A stretch of 64,000 nt of DNA, from positions 32,533-96,532 of the forward strand of contig NZ_QLME01000009.1 of assembly GCF_003259895.1 (NCBI RefSeq). Reading direction: 5' to 3'. Source of the stretch: Halanaerobium saccharolyticum. GTDB taxonomy: Bacteria; Bacillota; Halanaerobiia; Halanaerobiales; Halanaerobiaceae. The notes under the pieces were generated by a model, which saw only the letters and a program-made list of their open reading frames with translations, was not told the DNA's origin and did no database searches. Positions within the stretch are counted from its first letter, which is position 1; the number at the start of each line of letters is the position of its first letter. The translations under genes and the position numbers were made by a program. Positions 4,353 through 19,196 of the stretch are shown here, piece by piece.

Positions 4353-7300
4353 ATGTTACTTACAATAGGAATGATGGTAAAAAATGAAGAAAAACACTTA
4401 GCAGAATGTCTTAGTAGTTTAGAAAGTATTAGAGAAGAACTTGATTCAGAGCTGGTTATTGTTGATACCGGCTCTGATGATAATACAGTAGAAATAGCAA
4501 AAGAATATACCGATAAAGTTTACTTTCATGAATGGAATGATAATTTTTCTGAGATGAGAAATACTGTAATTGATTATGCGAATGGTGATTGGTTTTTCAC
4601 TTTAGATGGTGATGAAGTTGTTTCTAATCCTAAAACAATAATTGATTTTTTTAAGAGTGGTAATTATAAGGAATATAAAACTGTATTTGTTACACAGAAA
4701 AACTATACTAACTTAGAAGAAAATAGATTTTCAAAGATATTACAGGCAAGACTTTTTGAAACTAAAGATTTTCATTATAAAGGTGCAGTACACAACCAAC
4801 CCCAATACAAAAAGCCTGTCTATGAATTAGATACTATCCTAGAACATTATGGCTATGTATCTTCTGATGAAGATTTGATTGAAAAAAAATTCAAGAGAAC
4901 TTCTAATATTTTAAAACAAGAATTAGAAAAAGATCCAACCAACGTTTATTATTGGTTTCAGTTATCTAAAAGTTATAACATGCATAAAGATCAGGAAGAT
5001 GCCCTGGATGCTATTGAAGAGGCTTATAAAGTAGCTCAAGAAAATGATCTTGATTTATCAATTAGAATGTATGTTTTGATTCAATTAGCTAAGATGTATT
5101 TAATTAATAATCGTTATAAAATGGCAGAAAAAATTGTTGAAAATGCGCTTGATATTAAAGATGGTTATGTAGATTTATATTATTATTTAGCCAGGGCACA
5201 ATTATTACAGGGAAAAAAAGAAGAAGGATTAAGTAATTTTAAGGAATATATTAAATTAATAAATAATTATGATCAAACTAACAGTAAAATCGATACATCT
5301 GTTGATGATGAGACAATGGGAAATTATAATATAGCCTATCGTTTTATTATTGCTTTAGCTGCAGATTTAGAAATTGAAACAGATTATGCGATTGAAGCAG
5401 CTTTTAAAATAGATGTTAATTCACAATTACAACATGCTATTCATCCCTTTATTTCTATTTGTTTAAATAATCGGAGACATATGGAGCTTAAAAAGTTTTA
5501 TCTTGAACAATTAGAAAATAAAAATTTAAAAACTAAATTCATTAATCTTTTAGAAAAATTAAAATCTAATTTAATTATTGAAGAAAAAGAGAAAGTTAAT
5601 TCACTTTTTACTGATTTAGAAGATAATAGAGAATATAGTTTATTAAATAAGGTTAGAGAAAATATTTATCAAAAAAGTTATCAGGTTAATATTGAGCAAT
5701 TGGTAGATATTAATTATAATACTAACCCTGACTATTATGGGGATATTTTTTATTATTTATTAAAAATGAAAAATAATGACACTACTTATAAATTACTAAC
5801 TAATATTAGGGAAGAAAATTTAAACAGATTTATTAGTTATTTAAATGATAAGTATGATGATTTATCTGATGTTATGATGTCTTTTGTTGATTTGGATGTT
5901 AAAGGAATTGCTGAGGCAAGAGTTAATAAATCTCTAAGTCGTTATCTATTAGCTTTAGATAATGAAGTTGAGAAAACTAATAAAACTATTATTGAAAATT
6001 ATTTAAGTGCTGGGAAAAAATATATAGAAAAATTATATACTAAGGAAATTATTAAAAATGAGCTAATATATGAATTGAAAAGTGAAGAAGAAGCATTTTT
6101 ACTTTATATGTATAAAGCTTTTGAGGTTAAAGAAGATGACTTAAAGATTTATATTCAATATTTACGTAAAGCAATCGATATTTATCCTTTAATGAAAAAA
6201 GTTGTTGAGACTTTGATGTTAGAGGTTAAAGAAGAGCAAGGTAAGATTAATAAAATGGAAGAGATCAAAGATGATATTAAATCTAAGGTAGAAACAATGA
6301 TATCTAATAATAATTTAATAGGGGCTGAAAAAACACTAACAGAATATCAACAAAGATTTAAAATTGATGAAGATATATATTCTATGAAATCAATTATTTT
6401 AATTAATAAGGGTTTTTTAGAAGAAGCTAAAGAAGTTTTAATTAAAGGATTAGAAATCTATCCTAATAATTTTGATTTGAACTTTAACTTATCTTTTGTT
6501 TATGAAAACTTAGATAAATTAGAAAGAAGTATTGTTCAATATCATCGAGCAGAAGAGTTAGCTAAAAATAAGGTAGAAATCCAAGAAGTTGAAAAATCTT
6601 TAAATCGTATTAAAACTAATAATAAAAGTGCTGATATTAGCAAAAAAGAAAAAGTTGTTTTCTTTTGTAAAAAAGGCTTAGACAATTTTATTGATGATCT
6701 CATTAAAGGTCTATCTGATTTTTATGAAACTAAAAAAGTAATTGTAAATAAATATGATCAAATCGATAAATGGATTGAATGGTCAGATATAGTGTGGTTT
6801 GAATGGTGTGATGAATTAGTTATCTATGGTAGCAAATTAGATTTAGCTAGAGACAAGAAAATGGTTTGTAGGTTGCATAGTTATGAAGCTTTTACTAATT
6901 ATATAAGTAAAGTTAATTGGTCAAATATTGATAGAATAATTTTTGTAGCAGAACATATTAGAGAATTTGTTTTAAATCAGTTACAGGGAATAAATATTAA
7001 GAATAAATCTGTTATTATTCCGAATGGGTTAAATGCTAATAAATTTAATTACAGAAGAAGAAAACATGGATATAATTTAGCATATGTAGGATTAATAAAT
7101 TATAAAAAAGGTCCAATGCTTGCATTGCAACTTATTAAAGCATTAGCAGATATTAATAAAAAGTATAAGTTATTCATTGCTGGTAAATTTGAACAAGCAA
7201 GGTATTCATTATATTTTAAGCAAATGATAAAAGATATGAATCTTCAGGAAAATGTTTATTTTGAAGGTTGGCAGGATGATATTGATAAGTGGTTAGAAAA

Positions 7301-8570
7301 TAAAAATTATATAATTTCTAGTAGTGTGTTAGAAAGTCAACATTTATCTATTATGGAGGCTATGAGTAAAGGAATAAAACCAATTGTTCATAACTTTGTT
7401 GGAGCAAAAAATATTTATCCTGAAAAATATATTTGGAATTCTATTAATCAGGGTATAGAATTGATTAGAAATTCTGATTATAGTTCAATGGAATACAAGA
7501 AATTCATTCAAAACAATTACTCTTTAAAAAAACAAATATCAAAGACTAAATCATTACTGGAAAAAATTAATAAGGAAAATTCAAAACATGAATTCGATTA
7601 TAATTCATATTGGAATATGAGGTTGAATAATAAATTTGACATAGAAGGTGTTGGATATATTGGATTAGGTAAAATCTATAACAAATATCTGTATAATATA
7701 AGATTTGATATATTAAAACACATAGTAAACAAATCATTTATCAGTTTAAAAAACAAAGATATTTTAGAATTAGGACCTGGGATAGGAATATTTACAGATT
7801 ATTTTTTCAAGTCAAATGTTGGTAAATATCGGGGAATCGACATAGCAAAAAAATCTATAGTTGAATTATCTAAAAAATATAAAGAGTTTAATTTTATTCA
7901 TGGAGATATATCTAACCCAGATAATTTTGGTGATAGCAAGTATGATTTGATATTTGCAGCAGATGTTTTATTACATCAAACTAATGAAAAAAAATATAAT
8001 GCTACAATAAAAAACATTTATAGTAGTTTAAAAGATAATGGAATTGTTATTCTCTTTGATCCAATATCAGTCATCGGTACAAAAAGTAAATCCGAACATG
8101 TTATTATAAGAGATATTGAGTATATAAAAAAGATATTGAATAAAAATGGATTGGATTTATTTGCTTTATTACCTACATCTTTTTTTATGAATAATCCATT
8201 TGATGCAAATTTATTGGAGGAGAATAAAGCGGATGTTATTAATTTATTTAAATATATTAATAATATTTTTGGTGGATCGAACTTGCCTTTGAAATCAAAA
8301 GAAATTTTAGCTAAATGGTTGTCTATGTTAGAAAGAAAATGTTTAGTTTCAAAAGGTTTTGGTTTATCTCAGAAAGTATTAATAATAACCAAAAATGGGA
8401 AAGATGATATTTTTAAAGAACAAAATATAAATATAGAAAATATTTGGGACATAAATAATATAGAAGCGAATATCATAAAAAACAAAAATATACTTGCTAA
8501 TGATAATTATATTAATAAAGATAATTTGATACTTAAATTTGAGAAATTAATTAACCCAATCATTACTTAG
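4353..8570 (+). CDS. Multidomain glycosyltransferase (GT2 - TPR - GT4) with C-terminal SAM methyltransferase
   Basis: A 1405-residue fusion directly behind fliD. Residues 1 to about 230 are a family 2 glycosyltransferase: IGMMVKNEEKHLAECLSSLE, a VDTGSDDNTVE nucleotide-sugar motif and a TLDGDE metal site near residue 84. A long helical middle with TPR-like units (about 170-330 and 640-750) follows. About 760-1045 is a GT-B (GT4-type) transferase with VIIPNGLNANKF, LAYVGLINYKKGP and the SSSVLESQHLSIMEAMSKG donor-site segment. About 1130-1220 is a class I methyltransferase with ILELGPGIGIFTD and a later YDLIFAADVLLHQ. Position between filament genes and amino-sugar genes suggests it assembles and O-methylates a flagellin glycan. 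The acceptor and sugars are unknown. It is richer in A+T than the flanking genes. Confidence 0.88.
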   Translation: MLLTIGMMVKNEEKHLAECLSSLESIREELDSELVIVDTGSDDNTVEIAKEYTDKVYFHEWNDNFSEMRNTVIDYANGDWFFTLDGDEVVSNPKTIIDFFKSGNYKEYKTVFVTQKNYTNLEENRFSKILQARLFETKDFHYKGAVHNQPQYKKPVYELDTILEHYGYVSSDEDLIEKKFKRTSNILKQELEKDPTNVYYWFQLSKSYNMHKDQEDALDAIEEAYKVAQENDLDLSIRMYVLIQLAKMYLINNRYKMAEKIVENALDIKDGYVDLYYYLARAQLLQGKKEEGLSNFKEYIKLINNYDQTNSKIDTSVDDETMGNYNIAYRFIIALAADLEIETDYAIEAAFKIDVNSQLQHAIHPFISICLNNRRHMELKKFYLEQLENKNLKTKFINLLEKLKSNLIIEEKEKVNSLFTDLEDNREYSLLNKVRENIYQKSYQVNIEQLVDINYNTNPDYYGDIFYYLLKMKNNDTTYKLLTNIREENLNRFISYLNDKYDDLSDVMMSFVDLDVKGIAEARVNKSLSRYLLALDNEVEKTNKTIIENYLSAGKKYIEKLYTKEIIKNELIYELKSEEEAFLLYMYKAFEVKEDDLKIYIQYLRKAIDIYPLMKKVVETLMLEVKEEQGKINKMEEIKDDIKSKVETMISNNNLIGAEKTLTEYQQRFKIDEDIYSMKSIILINKGFLEEAKEVLIKGLEIYPNNFDLNFNLSFVYENLDKLERSIVQYHRAEELAKNKVEIQEVEKSLNRIKTNNKSADISKKEKVVFFCKKGLDNFIDDLIKGLSDFYETKKVIVNKYDQIDKWIEWSDIVWFEWCDELVIYGSKLDLARDKKMVCRLHSYEAFTNYISKVNWSNIDRIIFVAEHIREFVLNQLQGINIKNKSVIIPNGLNANKFNYRRRKHGYNLAYVGLINYKKGPMLALQLIKALADINKKYKLFIAGKFEQARYSLYFKQMIKDMNLQENVYFEGWQDDIDKWLENKNYIISSSVLESQHLSIMEAMSKGIKPIVHNFVGAKNIYPEKYIWNSINQGIELIRNSDYSSMEYKKFIQNNYSLKKQISKTKSLLEKINKENSKHEFDYNSYWNMRLNNKFDIEGVGYIGLGKIYNKYLYNIRFDILKHIVNKSFISLKNKDILELGPGIGIFTDYFFKSNVGKYRGIDIAKKSIVELSKKYKEFNFIHGDISNPDNFGDSKYDLIFAADVLLHQTNEKKYNATIKNIYSSLKDNGIVILFDPISVIGTKSKSEHVIIRDIEYIKKILNKNGLDLFALLPTSFFMNNPFDANLLEENKADVINLFKYINNIFGGSNLPLKSKEILAKWLSMLERKCLVSKGFGLSQKVLIITKNGKDDIFKEQNINIENIWDINNIEANIIKNKNILANDNYINKDNLILKFEKLINPIIT

Positions 8571-14989: not shown

Positions 14990-15229
14990 ATGGTTAAAAA
15001 CTGCTACATCTGCGGTGATTTAACTAAAAATGACTCCGGCCTCTGTGATGATTGTCAGGAAAAAAATCAGTACAAACTTCGTCAGATTAAAGATTATCTC
15101 TGGGACCATCCCAATTCTACAGTCAAAAAAATACACAAAGAGACCGGTGTTGATGAAAAGTTAATCCGCAAATATATTCGAGAGGATAAATTTATTATCA
15201 GCAACACAATAGAATATGATCAGGACTAA
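14990..15229 (+). CDS. yvyF: YvyF-like flagellar operon protein (TIGR03826 type)
   Basis: A 79-residue protein with an N-terminal treble-clef-like zinc site (CYICGD and CDDCQE, near residues 5-23) followed by a winged or HTH-like segment, IKDYLWDHPNSTVKKIHKE then TGVDEKLIRKYIRED. This is the usual arrangement of the flagellar operon protein TIGR03826 / YvyF, which in Bacillus lies by flgM and the filament genes. A regulatory or assembly function is likely but not proven for the family. It is followed at once by a strong terminator, so it is the last gene of its transcript. Confidence 0.85.
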   Translation: MVKNCYICGDLTKNDSGLCDDCQEKNQYKLRQIKDYLWDHPNSTVKKIHKETGVDEKLIRKYIREDKFIISNTIEYDQD

Positions 15230-15256: not shown

Positions 15257-15477
15257 CTGATGTTTAATGATATTTTTCGACATAAAATTACAAAATAAAA
15301 GGAATTATATTATAATTACCCTTTTATAATATTTTTAAACTTAATTGTATAAACATGTAAATAAGGTTTAATTTAAGTTCTGGTGATTTTATTCACTCAC
15401 AGCAGAGCTGAGAGTATTTAAGAAAATAACAACTCTAAACGATTATAATAACGAAGGATATAATTGGCAGAAAAGAG

Positions 15478-16695
15478 GTGAAAATAATTAGGAGCGCTTT
15501 ATTAAGAATAATGATTATTTTAATTTTAATTATAGTGATTTCACCATTAACTCGGGCTGAAGAGGTAACAGTTAGCACTGAAGCAGATATTACTGCAGGA
15601 GCAGAATTGGCCCGCAGAGAAGCACTACAAAATGCATTTTTAGAAGCAGTTCAAAAAGCAGCTGGGAATTATATTAATAAATCGATACTGGTAGAAAATT
15701 CTCAACTGATCAGCCGTCGGATTTTCTCTAAGGCTGAAGGCTATGTCAGCAGTTATCAGATTTTAGAAGAATCAGCTGCAGAGGGAATCTATCAGTTAAA
15801 AATAAAGGCAGAAGTAACTTCTAAACTTTTTTCCGATTTAGAAGAATTAAAGATGATCATTAAAACTCAAACTAGTAATCCCCGTATTTTGCTGTTGATG
15901 GATGATGCTCAGATAGAAACTTTAACCAGAACTTCGGTTAACGAATTTCAGGCAGAGGTAGCTGCTATAGAAAGATCTCTGGGAGCGATCTCAGGAGTTA
16001 ATCCCAATGCAGCAAGAATACAGCAGTTTTTAAAAAATGAGCTGCAGCAGCTTGGTTTTGAATTAGCTGCTGGCGATATAGAAAATATTTTTTTAAACTC
16101 ACTGGGAAGCTCAGAGCAGTGGCAGCAGAATGCTCCAAAACTGCTCACAAGTTCTAAGCGAAAATGGCCTTTTGAGCTTCTAATTACTGGTAAACATGAT
16201 TCAGTCAGACTGGGGGAAAAAGAATTTTCTTTTGGACCTTTAATCATTCAGGGAGTAGAAAGTTCATTTTCTGTTTATAGTGCTCAGACAGGAGAAAAGC
16301 TAAAGGAAATTAAATTTACTGAAAAAGCCTATGCAGAAGATCCCAATAGAGCTTTAGAAATTGCTGTAGAAAAGGTAGGCAGCTCAGGAGCTGTAAGACT
16401 GACAGAAGAACTTATGCCGTTAATTAATCTAAACAGCGGCCAGAAAAGTTTAAAGTTAAAAGTAAATAATTTAGCCTCCTATGGAGATTTAACTTCTCTG
16501 GAGAAAGTAATAAAAAAACTTGAAGGAATAAAAAGCTTTAAGCTTCACAGTTTTGCTGATAACTCAGCTTCCTACATTCTAAATGTAATGCAGAGTACAG
16601 ATGTACTGGCAGAGCGTTTCAACAATGAAGAAGAATTCCCTTTAAAGATTATGGAGCTGGGACCCGATTATTTAGAACTTACTGCCAATTTATAA
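15478..16695 (+). CDS. flgT: FlgT-like flagellar outer-membrane ring protein
   Basis: Exported protein of up to 405 residues. A hydrophobic signal segment (about 5-22, ending TRAEE) precedes a domain with AELARREALQNAFLEAVQKAA and ISRRIFSKAEGYVSSYQIL, the FlgT N-terminal (LPP20-like) pattern. A middle domain begins at PRILLLMDDAQ (about 137), and there is a C-terminal domain (about 330-405). Vibrio FlgT has a similar length and forms the H ring around the flagellar basal body at the outer membrane. The start is uncertain: GTG at 15478 overlaps GAGGTG, the best ribosome-like motif, and ATG at 15511 would shorten the signal peptide and remove its positive charges. It heads an operon with FlgP-like and FlgO-like genes. 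Confidence 0.75.
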   Translation: MKIIRSALLRIMIILILIIVISPLTRAEEVTVSTEADITAGAELARREALQNAFLEAVQKAAGNYINKSILVENSQLISRRIFSKAEGYVSSYQILEESAAEGIYQLKIKAEVTSKLFSDLEELKMIIKTQTSNPRILLLMDDAQIETLTRTSVNEFQAEVAAIERSLGAISGVNPNAARIQQFLKNELQQLGFELAAGDIENIFLNSLGSSEQWQQNAPKLLTSSKRKWPFELLITGKHDSVRLGEKEFSFGPLIIQGVESSFSVYSAQTGEKLKEIKFTEKAYAEDPNRALEIAVEKVGSSGAVRLTEELMPLINLNSGQKSLKLKVNNLASYGDLTSLEKVIKKLEGIKSFKLHSFADNSASYILNVMQSTDVLAERFNNEEEFPLKIMELGPDYLELTANL

Positions 16696-16729
16696 AAACA
16701 ATTTAACTATCAAACAGGAGATGATACTA

Positions 16730-17539
16730 ATGAAAAAATTACTAACAGCAGTATTGATTACAGCATTCTTTCTTTTAACAATTTCATCTGCAGTCAGTGC
16801 CGACGAAGATTTGATTTCTAATGTAATGGTTAAGTATTTTAAAGGATCAGTAGAAACAACTGGGATGGCAGTTGCTCCAGATAATATGTCTAATGCAGCT
16901 CAGGCTAAGGTTTTAGCTAGAGAAGGGGCAATTGTTGATGCTCGAGCCAAAATGCTGGAATATATCAAAGGAGTACATATTACTAAAGATGTAACTGTGG
17001 TTAATGCAATGGCCAATTCTAAAATCAATCAAACTCTGGAAGGATTTATTGATGGTACATATGTTGTAGAGGGCAGCGAAAAATGGGAAGAAGGAATATA
17101 TCAGGTCACAATGCGCAAAGATATTGATGAATTTAACCGTGTTTTCTACGAAGAACAGAGTACAGAATTTGCCACAGAGCCTGCTGCGAGAGAAACAAAT
17201 TATACCGGACTTGTAATTGATGCCCGGAATGTTAATTTAAATCCACAGGTAATGTTTAGAATTGAAGCTGAGAATGGAACAGTGGTTTATGATAATACAA
17301 AAGCACTTTTTGAACCAGCTGTAGATAAAGGTCTGGTCGGATTTGCTCCTTCTATAGAAAGAGCTTCGGAATTACCACGTGTTGGTGAGACCCCTTTAAT
17401 TGTAGAGGCAGTTGAGGTTAATGGCGAAGATGGTACTGTTGTAGTTATCAGCAACGAAGATGCAGTAAAAATAAATAAAGAATTAGAAAGTACAAAAGTA
17501 TTTAGACAGGCTAATGTAGTAGCCGTTATTGATGAATAG
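16730..17539 (+). CDS. flgP: LPP20/FlgP-like exported protein
   Basis: A 269-residue secreted protein: MKKLLTAVLITAFFLLTISS signal segment with a likely signal peptidase I site at AVSA-DE and no lipobox cysteine. Residues of about 55-150 carry the LPP20-type core, AKVLAREGAIVDARAKMLEY, then TLEGFIDGTYVVEG and GIYQVTMRKDI. A C-terminal domain of about 110 residues, beginning TNYTGLVIDARNVNLNP, is extra compared with Vibrio FlgP (a short lipoprotein). The ATG at 16730 has AGGAG nine bases before it; the upstream ATG at 16721 touches that site. Lying between FlgT-like and FlgO-like genes, it probably belongs to a flagellar ring at the outer membrane. Confidence 0.74.
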   Translation: MKKLLTAVLITAFFLLTISSAVSADEDLISNVMVKYFKGSVETTGMAVAPDNMSNAAQAKVLAREGAIVDARAKMLEYIKGVHITKDVTVVNAMANSKINQTLEGFIDGTYVVEGSEKWEEGIYQVTMRKDIDEFNRVFYEEQSTEFATEPAARETNYTGLVIDARNVNLNPQVMFRIEAENGTVVYDNTKALFEPAVDKGLVGFAPSIERASELPRVGETPLIVEAVEVNGEDGTVVVISNEDAVKINKELESTKVFRQANVVAVIDE

Positions 17540-17549
17540 AGGTCAAGTG

Positions 17550-18107
17550 ATGACTAAATTATTTGATAAAAAAATACTGTTTCTGACTGTTATTATTTTA
17601 ATTTTAACAACGCTTCCGGCAGCAGCTGACAGCCTTGGAGATGCTGTAAATACAATAGTCTCTGAGTTGACATCTGATCTTTTTATGACAATTCCGGGAG
17701 ATGAAGATTATAAAATAGCGGTTGCTGATTTTTTAAATCAAAACAATCAAAAAACCCAGCTCAGTAACTTTATTAGTGAAAACATAACCATAACTTTAAT
17801 TAATGAGAGTGACCAGAATATTAGAGTTTTAGAACGTCAGCGTTTAAATTCTGTTTTAGAAGAACAGGATCGAATGACATCTGGAGTTTTAAAACAGGAT
17901 ACATCGGAAAAAATTGGAGAACTGCTGGGTGCAGATAGTATAATAATTGGTAAATATTATAATATAAAAAAGGAAATTCATTTAATTGCTAAATTAGTTT
18001 CTATAGAAACCGGATATATTCACTCTGCAGTCAAGCTGATTTTGGAAAAAGATGAGATTATTCATTCTATGCTTGGTGAAAACTATATTCAGAGGACGAT
18101 GAATTAG
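17550..18107 (+). CDS. flgO: FlgO/CsgG-like exported protein
   Basis: A 185-residue secreted protein: a hydrophobic leader ends near LPAAADS without a lipobox. The mature part reads YKIAVADFLNQNNQ, then NIRVLERQRLNSVLEEQDR, IGELLGADSIIIGKYYNI and LVSIETGYIHSAV. This is the fold signature shared by FlgO and the N-terminal part of CsgG (strand, V-x-E-R-x-x-x-x-x-x-L, G-A-D-x-I-I-x-G-x-Y). Start at the ATG at 17550 (AGAGGT seven bases upstream); TTG/ATG at 17529/17532 are less likely. It overlaps no gene but starts 10 bases after flgP. Vibrio FlgO is an outer-membrane flagellar protein. Confidence 0.75.
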   Translation: MTKLFDKKILFLTVIILILTTLPAAADSLGDAVNTIVSELTSDLFMTIPGDEDYKIAVADFLNQNNQKTQLSNFISENITITLINESDQNIRVLERQRLNSVLEEQDRMTSGVLKQDTSEKIGELLGADSIIIGKYYNIKKEIHLIAKLVSIETGYIHSAVKLILEKDEIIHSMLGENYIQRTMN

Positions 18108-18162: not shown

Positions 18163-18197
18163 TCCTGCTGTGTCAATTTTGATGCAGCAGGATTTTT
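18163..18197 (+). terminator. Terminator after the flgT-flgP-flgO operon
   Basis: TCCTGCTG (18163-18170) pairs with CAGCAGGA (18185-18192), 14-base loop, then TTTTTCT. Good intrinsic terminator. Confidence 0.87.
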
Positions 18198-18305
18198 CTA
18201 TTTTGATTTTATTTAGTTGATATTGTTCTACATGATATCGATGATAAACAGTATAATAAGTCAGGATGAGAGAGATAAATCAATGTAATCTCTTTTAATC
18301 AGATT

Positions 18306-18333
18306 TAATATTTGATATTTATTTACCGATTAT
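18306..18333 (+). promoter_or_regulatory. Possible sigma-28 (SigD) promoter for the third flagellin
   Basis: TAAT at 18306-18309 and CCGATTAT at 18326-18333 are spaced by 16 bases, close to the flagellar sigma consensus (TAAA, 15 bases, CCGATAT). The start codon is 39 bases downstream. No comparable site is visible between the twin flagellins. Confidence 0.5.
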
Positions 18334-18371: not shown

Positions 18372-19196
18372 GTGATTATCAATACAAATATCGCAGCACT
18401 TAAGGCTTATAATAACTTAACTCATAACTACAACAGTTTAATTAAATCATTTGAACGCCTCTCTTCAGGCAAAAGAATCAATAGTGCAGCTGATGATGCA
18501 GCAGGACTGGCAATTAGTGAAAAAATGAAGGCTCAGATTAATGGACTCAGTCAGGCTCAGAGGAATGCCCAGGATGCTGTTTCTTTAGTCCAGACAGCAG
18601 AAGGTGGACTCAAAGAAAGCCATTCCATACTCCAGCGGATGCGGGAACTGGCTGTTCAAGCTTCCAATGACACTTATAGTGAAACGGATCGCGGAGAAAT
18701 TCAGAAAGAGATTGCAGAATTAGCTGAGGAATTAAGCTCAATTGGAGAATACACTCAATTTAACACCAAAAGCCTGCTGGATGGAAGCTTTGATGGTATT
18801 TTTCAAATTGGAGCCAATCAGGGACAGACCCTGGGGCTTCAGATTTCTGATATGCGAGCTCAAGCTCTGGGAGTAGTCGACGGCAGTGGAGAGGTTATTA
18901 AACTGACCGATCACGAGTCAGCAGCTGATGCTATTTCTATTTTTGATGAGGCTATCTCAAAAGTCTCTTCTGAAAGAGCAAAATTGGGAGCGGTTCAAAA
19001 TAGACTGGGCCACACAATTAATAATTTAAGTACCACAGAAACCAATTTAATTGCTGCTGAATCCAGAATTTCTAATGTTGATATGGCCAAAGAGATAATG
19101 AATATGGTCCGCTATCAGATTCTAGTGCAGGCAGGGATTGCAGTTTTAGCTCAGGCCAATCAGATGCCCCAGGGAATCCTGCAGCTTCTGGGTTAA
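18372..19196 (+). CDS. fliC: Flagellin C (short form, no variable domain)
   Basis: A 274-residue flagellin with complete D0/D1 helices (MIINTNIAALKAYNNLTHNY at the start, NQMPQGILQLLG at the end) but only a short linker (about 170-190) in place of the outer domain, so filaments made from it would be smooth. It differs from flagellins A and B throughout and uses more CTG/CAG codons, so it is not a recent copy. Start is GTG at 18372 with AAGGAGGTGA (18353-18362) upstream. The final helix has MVRYQILVQAGIAVLAQ where A and B have MSKQQILSQAGTAMLAQ, a departure in a normally conserved stretch that hints at a special role, such as a minor or basal segment subunit. Confidence 0.95.
   Translation: MIINTNIAALKAYNNLTHNYNSLIKSFERLSSGKRINSAADDAAGLAISEKMKAQINGLSQAQRNAQDAVSLVQTAEGGLKESHSILQRMRELAVQASNDTYSETDRGEIQKEIAELAEELSSIGEYTQFNTKSLLDGSFDGIFQIGANQGQTLGLQISDMRAQALGVVDGSGEVIKLTDHESAADAISIFDEAISKVSSERAKLGAVQNRLGHTINNLSTTETNLIAAESRISNVDMAKEIMNMVRYQILVQAGIAVLAQANQMPQGILQLLG

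What the first reader, a model, noticed from the sequence alone, without database searches (positions are those of the whole stretch)
15478..18107. FlgT-FlgP-FlgO-like operon in a Firmicute: a possible outer-membrane flagellar ring
Three adjacent genes encode secreted proteins with FlgT N-terminal, LPP20/FlgP and FlgO/CsgG-like patterns, between yvyF and a flagellin gene and closed by their own terminator. In Vibrio, FlgO, FlgP and FlgT form rings where the flagellum passes the outer membrane. Finding the trio in a low-GC Firmicute with TolC and RND genes suggests that diderm Firmicutes also build a ring of this kind. The FlgP-like protein has an extra C-terminal domain and lacks lipidation, so the structure may differ from the Vibrio one.
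Basis: partly seen in the sequence, partly recalled or inferred. Interest (0 to 1): 0.78.

Follow-up and report, generated by a model that had tools for sequence, protein, structure and literature searches.

The report
FlgT/FlgP/FlgO-like trio with flagellar-type promoter
Three neighbouring genes in an outer-membrane-bearing relative of Bacillus resemble proteins that build extra rings around the flagellum in Vibrio and carry a flagellar-type promoter, but related gene sets also occur in a bacterium in which no flagellin was found, so a flagellar ring is plausible here but not proven.

Summary
The trio is real: three intact secreted-protein genes (T, P, O), with their own promoter-like site and terminator, beside a yvyF-like and a flagellin gene. 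T has a FlgT_N domain; its model (modest confidence) has Vibrio FlgT as the best two PDB matches. P has an LPP20 domain related to FlgP plus a second domain; over its full length it matches Treponema Tp0624 domains 1-2, not FlgP. O belongs to the CsgG/LpoB/FlgO superfamily; CsgG scores best. In all three Halanaerobium genomes with the trio, a promoter-like element of the flgM/chemoreceptor type (sigma-28-like) lies at the same place before T. This favours a motility role. But the trio is in only 3 of 38 genomes of the order, while 26 have the L-ring gene flgH. Related T-P-O clusters occur across diderm Firmicutes, mostly without flagellar neighbours, and once in a complete genome without a detected flagellin. 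Best reading: an outer-membrane T-P-O module that a few Halanaerobium species placed in the motility regulon, perhaps as a collar at the L-ring. Ring formation is inferred only.

The parts
15417..15446 (+). Promoter-like element TTTAAG-N16-ACGATTAT (flgM/MCP type, sigma-28-like)
   Evidence: Conserved at the same distance from the T start in G000, G005, G010; same boxes at flgM of two species and before an MCP gene; 1 match in the window, 0.01 expected
15478..16695 (+). Gene T: FlgT-like secreted protein, 405 aa (FlgT_N domain, CsgG/TolB-like middle, C-terminal alpha/beta domain)
   Evidence: Pfam FlgT_N; Foldseek best two PDB hits are Vibrio FlgT, 3w1e and 8z5n; model pLDDT 64
16730..17539 (+). 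Gene P: LPP20/FlgP-like domain plus second domain, 269 aa, secreted, no lipobox
   Evidence: FlgP 9hmf_C E 7.8e-7; profile hits Tp0624 E 4e-27 and Vibrio FlgP E 4e-8; model pLDDT 82, Tp0624 Z 21.1 over 230 residues
17550..18107 (+). Gene O: CsgG/LpoB/FlgO-superfamily secreted protein, 185 aa, no lipobox
   Evidence: Pfam CsgG 41, LpoB 28.4, FlgO 26.3 bits, all over cut-off
18163..18192 (+). Intrinsic terminator closing the trio
   Evidence: 13-pair stem followed by a T run
14990..15229 (+). YvyF-like gene (N-terminal half, 79 aa) upstream of the trio
   Evidence: TIGR03826, 53 bits, below its cut-off of 124; a like gene lies about 7.4 kb from the trio in G005
18304..18332 (+). Similar promoter-like element before the next flagellin gene (TTTAAT-N14-TACCGATTA)
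18372..19196 (+). Flagellin gene, 274 aa
   Evidence: NCBIfam flagellin models; Flagellin_N

Best explanation
T, P and O form a small transcription unit of secreted, non-lipidated proteins that probably work in the periplasm close to the outer membrane. In the few Halanaerobium species that have it, it is read from a sigma-28-type promoter with the late flagellar and chemotaxis genes, and it probably assembles as a collar or ring next to the L-ring where the rod leaves the cell, bracing the outer membrane or the LP ring. It belongs to a wider T-P-O envelope module of diderm Firmicutes that is not tied to flagella. Shown: gene identity, domain relations, a promoter-like element conserved in three species, presence of FlgH and Omp85. 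Inferred: use of that element by sigma-28, location, ring assembly, contact with the L-ring, function.
For: Families: FlgT_N over cut-off; the T model has Vibrio FlgT 3w1e (E 7e-11, 404 columns) and the FlgT of the LPHT ring 8z5n (E 7e-10) as its two best PDB hits. P: FlgP 9hmf_C E 7.8e-7 with only small gaps over 92 residues, so the stretch that makes the ring-forming hairpin in FlgP is present in similar length (PMC12222027). Regulation: TTTAAK-N15/16-ACGATWAT occurs once in 64 kb (0.01 expected), at the trio, in G005 and G010 at the same place, and closely like sites stand before flgM in two species and before an MCP gene. Location beside a yvyF-like gene and a flagellin, with a flgN-flgK-flgL-flagellin-flaG-fliD cluster less than 20 kb upstream. 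FlgH, Omp85. All three trio holders have FlgH.
Against: Most FlgH-bearing relatives lack the trio (7 of 10 FlgH-positive genomes of the genus). Related T-P-O clusters occur in genomes and contexts without flagellar genes. In G005 the trio is 7.4 kb from the yvyF-like gene, and in G010 no flagellar gene was seen on its 10.9-kb contig. P matches Tp0624 far better than FlgP. The promoter pattern was drawn after seeing the sites; a looser N16 form is no commoner genome-wide than its reversed control, and flgM sites use N15. T has no FlgT_M or FlgT_C match and its model is of modest confidence.
Confidence: 0.5

Rival explanations
1. A general outer-membrane or periplasm module (T-P-O) with no part in the flagellum; its place near flagellar genes in Halanaerobium is incidental.
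For: Related clusters across diderm Firmicutes without flagellar neighbours; in Orenia and Halanaerobacter they sit with a DUF5723 protein and secreted proteins, one with carboxypeptidase-regulatory-like domains; G282, a single-contig genome, has T-P-O but no detected flagellin; P-family proteins in candidate division WOR-3 and spirochaetes; all 43 genomes tested have Omp85.
Against: The flgM/MCP-type promoter-like element before the trio in three species and the neighbouring yvyF-like and flagellin genes are not expected. The Halanaerobium branch is long and may have taken a new role.
Confidence: 0.33
2. A CsgG-type export system: O, or an O complex, forms an outer-membrane channel or gate for a secreted surface protein, with T and P as periplasmic helpers.
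For: CsgG is the best Pfam match of O; the middle of T resembles CsgG and TolB; many related clusters carry two CsgG-like genes.
Against: The CsgG match of O covers only model positions 10-97 of 210; O is 185 aa with no lipobox; no substrate or CsgE/F-like gene was seen in the trio.
Confidence: 0.1

Closest known systems
Vibrio H-ring proteins FlgO, FlgP, FlgT (PMC6375700; PDB 3w1e, 8z5n)
   Same: Three neighbouring genes of the same superfamilies; T is FlgT-like by domain and by best fold match; P has the FlgP/LPP20 domain; O matches the FlgO profile over almost its whole length.
   Different: P has a second domain and no lipobox; O scores better to CsgG; FlgT_M and FlgT_C not found by profile; present in few flagellated relatives; related sets without flagellar context.
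Treponema pallidum Tp0624 domains D1-D2 (PDB 5jir, PMC5104382)
   Same: Full-length match of P: profile E 4e-27, Z 21.1 over 230 residues at 3.2 A.
   Different: Tp0624 adds an OmpA-like third domain; its function is unknown.
Campylobacter FlgP basal disk and Helicobacter Lpp20 (PDB 9hmf, 5ok8)
   Same: LPP20/SHS2-like domain of P, with the FlgP insert region in similar length.
   Different: Those proteins have the LPP20 domain without the D2-like domain that P carries.
Diderm-type P and L rings of Halanaerobiales and Negativicutes (PMC5007114)
   Same: The same lineage has FlgH, FlgI and FlgA.
   Different: That paper's main text, searched for CsgG and LPP20, does not mention them.

Membership tests
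FlgT | FlgT N-terminal domain (PF16548) | tested here: met
   30.7 bits, cut-off 28.8
FlgT | Middle and C-terminal domains as in FlgT (PF16539, PF16538) | tested here: inconclusive
   No Pfam match up to E 5; but the fold of residues 28-328 aligns to FlgT 3w1e, Z 10.8 (219 residues, rmsd 19.2, so domain by domain at best), Foldseek E 7e-11; model pLDDT 64
FlgP | LPP20/SHS2 domain related to solved FlgP | tested here: met
   P0002 to 9hmf_C E 7.8e-7; profile to 8z5n_2 E 4e-8; Pfam LPP20 itself is below cut-off
FlgP | LPP20 domain only, no further domain | tested here: not met
   P has a second domain, about 158-269, matching Tp0624 D2
FlgP | Lipoprotein signal | tested here: not met
   No lipobox in P of any of the three species by a simple pattern; PMC11756786 reports that FlgP homologues of Helicobacter species without a sheath also lack it
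FlgO | FlgO domain (PF17680) over cut-off | tested here: met
   26.3 bits, cut-off 22.6, positions 2-127 of 130; CsgG scores higher
Vibrio-type H-ring | Trio found only with flagella | tested here: not met
   The three Halanaerobium genomes all have FlgH, but the wider cluster is in G282, where no flagellin was found
Vibrio-type H-ring | Ring around the L-ring in the motor | not testable with these tools
   Needs cryo-electron tomography
Vibrio-type H-ring | MotX/MotY T-ring partners and sodium stator | not tested
   No search was run for MotX, MotY or stator type

The most novel reading that the evidence does not exclude
Diderm Firmicutes carry a T-P-O outer-membrane ring or collar module that is independent of flagella; some Halanaerobium species recruited it to the flagellum, as may have happened separately in the ancestors of Vibrio-type H-rings and Campylobacter-type disks.
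Probability: 0.3. Interest if true: 0.75.

Novelty: new variant of a known kind. Interest (0 to 1): 0.55.

Why it matters
Diderm Firmicutes have monoderm-like flagella with added P and L rings (PMC5007114). If a few of them add an H-ring-like collar drawn from a general envelope module, the origin of such rings becomes testable by comparing species of one genus with and without the trio. The wider T-P-O cluster, found in genomes that all have Omp85, is a candidate outer-membrane system of unknown use.

Tried and rejected
Generic sigma-28 consensus scoring (TAAA-N14-16-GCCGATAA) did not discriminate: the trio scored 9 of 12, a score shared by many upstream regions. A strict N16 pattern and a looser one found few sites genome-wide; of the four strict sites in the own genome, two precede the trio and the flagellin, and the other two lie inside ORFs by my reading. 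O against the PDB: P0003 alone and its three-row profile A3 gave no relevant hit. A wide profile of the P family had no stretch conserved enough for a collection scan, so a five-row one was used. G186 looked like a second case of a P-T pair near flgM/flgN/flgK/flgL, but its 'T' is FlgT_N fused to a BamB-like propeller, and no flgM-type site was found before it. Family trees have weak deep nodes and long branches and were not used for ancestry claims. A Pfam tally of 88 neighbours at eleven related loci showed no flagellar family among the 25 commonest of 135; rarer ones were not listed. The background rate of Omp85 and flagellin in the 398-genome sample was not measured, so no enrichment is claimed. 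The literature library gave no paper joining FlgT with diderm Firmicutes.

Full report
Observation. The three ORFs at 15478-16695 (T), 16730-17539 (P) and 17550-18107 (O) are intact, on one strand, and start with signal-sequence-like stretches without a lipobox. Pfam gives FlgT_N for T (30.7 bits, cut-off 28.8), LPP20 for P (18.3, below cut-off 25.9) and CsgG 41.0, LpoB 28.4 and FlgO 26.3 for O, all over cut-off. A terminator follows at 18163-18192. A short YvyF-like gene lies before and a flagellin gene after.

What T is. Sequence searches of the PDB give only weak hits, but a model built on four sequences (mean pLDDT 64, pTM 0.43) has Vibrio FlgT as its two best Foldseek matches (3w1e E 7e-11; 8z5n E 7e-10, over about 400 columns). 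TM-scores are low (0.26-0.37), so the arrangement of domains is not settled. The middle domain is of the widespread CsgG/TolB/LptE type. FlgT_M and FlgT_C were not found by Pfam.

What P is. P alone matches C. jejuni FlgP (9hmf_C, E 7.8e-7, residues 42-133 with small gaps; 9HMF is the C. jejuni motor scaffold; that chain C is FlgP is my reading of its length, name and match). The P-family profile matches Treponema Tp0624 over its whole length (E 4e-27) and Vibrio FlgP (E 4e-8). The model (mean pLDDT 82) aligns to Tp0624 at Z 21.1, 230 residues, 3.2 A, then Lpp20 at Z 8.9, with FlgT at Z 5.6. Thus the 'extra C-terminal domain' corresponds to Tp0624 domain D2 (PMC5104382, which already reports D1-D2 tandems in other bacteria).

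What O is. A CsgG/LpoB/FlgO-superfamily protein; FlgO covers it almost fully but is not its best match. No solved relative was found by sequence.

Promoter. Upstream alignments of the three trio-bearing genomes show two conserved boxes, TTTAAG and ACGATWATA, around a diverged spacer, at the same distance from the T start. Closely like boxes stand before flgM in G005 and G003 and before chemoreceptor genes in G005 (with TTCAAA) and G006; the own genome has one where its flgM should start. TTTAAK-N15/16-ACGATWAT occurs once in the window, at the trio, against 0.01 expected. Caveats: the pattern was drawn after seeing the sites; flgM sites have a spacer of 15 and the trio 16; a related N16 pattern is no commoner genome-wide than its reversed control; a generic sigma-28 score does not single out the trio. 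I take this as moderate evidence for membership of the late flagellar and chemotaxis regulon. That the type is sigma-28-like rests on general knowledge of the consensus TAAA-N15-GCCGATAA.

Distribution. Within the order (38 genomes) T and P are both found at high identity only in G000, G005 and G010, and FlgO over cut-off only in the same three, while FlgH is found in 26. In the genus, 10 of 12 genomes have FlgH and 3 of these have the trio. A P profile found matches in 38 of 398 genomes of the phylum. In the loci fetched T-, P- and O-like genes stand together in several families. Of 43 genomes then tested (those with a P or T match plus three Halanaerobium without the trio), all have Omp85 and 37 have a flagellin. 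G282, a single-contig genome of 99% completeness, has O-T-P together but no flagellin match; G322 has T-P-O and none either, but is in many contigs. Orenia and Halanaerobacter have T-P-O beside a DUF5723 protein and lipoprotein-like secreted proteins (by eye). Named relatives of P include Selenomonadaceae, Smithella, spirochaetes and candidate division WOR-3. In the P tree the Halanaerobium branch is long and joins G186 with moderate support (94/92); in the T tree it is long too.

Judgement. Homology to H-ring proteins is real at superfamily level, and the regulation points to motility in this genus. But the wider family is not bound to flagella, and most flagellated relatives manage without it. 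I give 0.5 to a flagellar collar role in the trio-bearing Halanaerobium, 0.33 to a general envelope module and 0.1 to an export system. Genus and order names rest on the named record of the G010 contig (Halanaerobium sp. 5-U2) and on the kinship given by the genome searches.

Noticed in passing
L095:5219-14876 and L097:1551-8935 (Orenia, Halanaerobacter); L056 (G213): A recurring gene set of T, P, CsgG-like O genes, a DUF5723 protein and secreted CarboxypepD_reg/PD40 proteins; a candidate outer-membrane system of diderm Firmicutes.
   Followed up: partly
L018:3-4287 (G028): A T homologue between two CsgG/LpoB-like genes and an ABC transporter of the MacB/FtsX (LolCDE-like) type, in a genome where neither FlgH nor flagellin was found (76% complete).
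   Followed up: partly
L054:8662-10062 (G186): FlgT_N domain fused to a BamB-like beta-propeller, next to a P gene and about 3 kb from a flgM/flgN/flgK/flgL-like cluster.
   Followed up: partly
L080:10210-11058 (G282): A CsgG/LpoB-like protein that carries a FlgT_C domain over its cut-off (31.1 bits), in the genome without a detected flagellin.
   Followed up: no
window 4353-8570: A 1405-aa protein with two glycosyltransferase domains, TPR and a methyltransferase domain, directly after fliD; perhaps for flagellin glycosylation, with PseC-like and formyltransferase-like genes nearby.
   Followed up: no
window 17201-17536 (residues 158-269 of P): The D2-like domain gave no Pfam match over cut-off in P or in four relatives, though it is conserved in many diderm bacteria.
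   Followed up: partly
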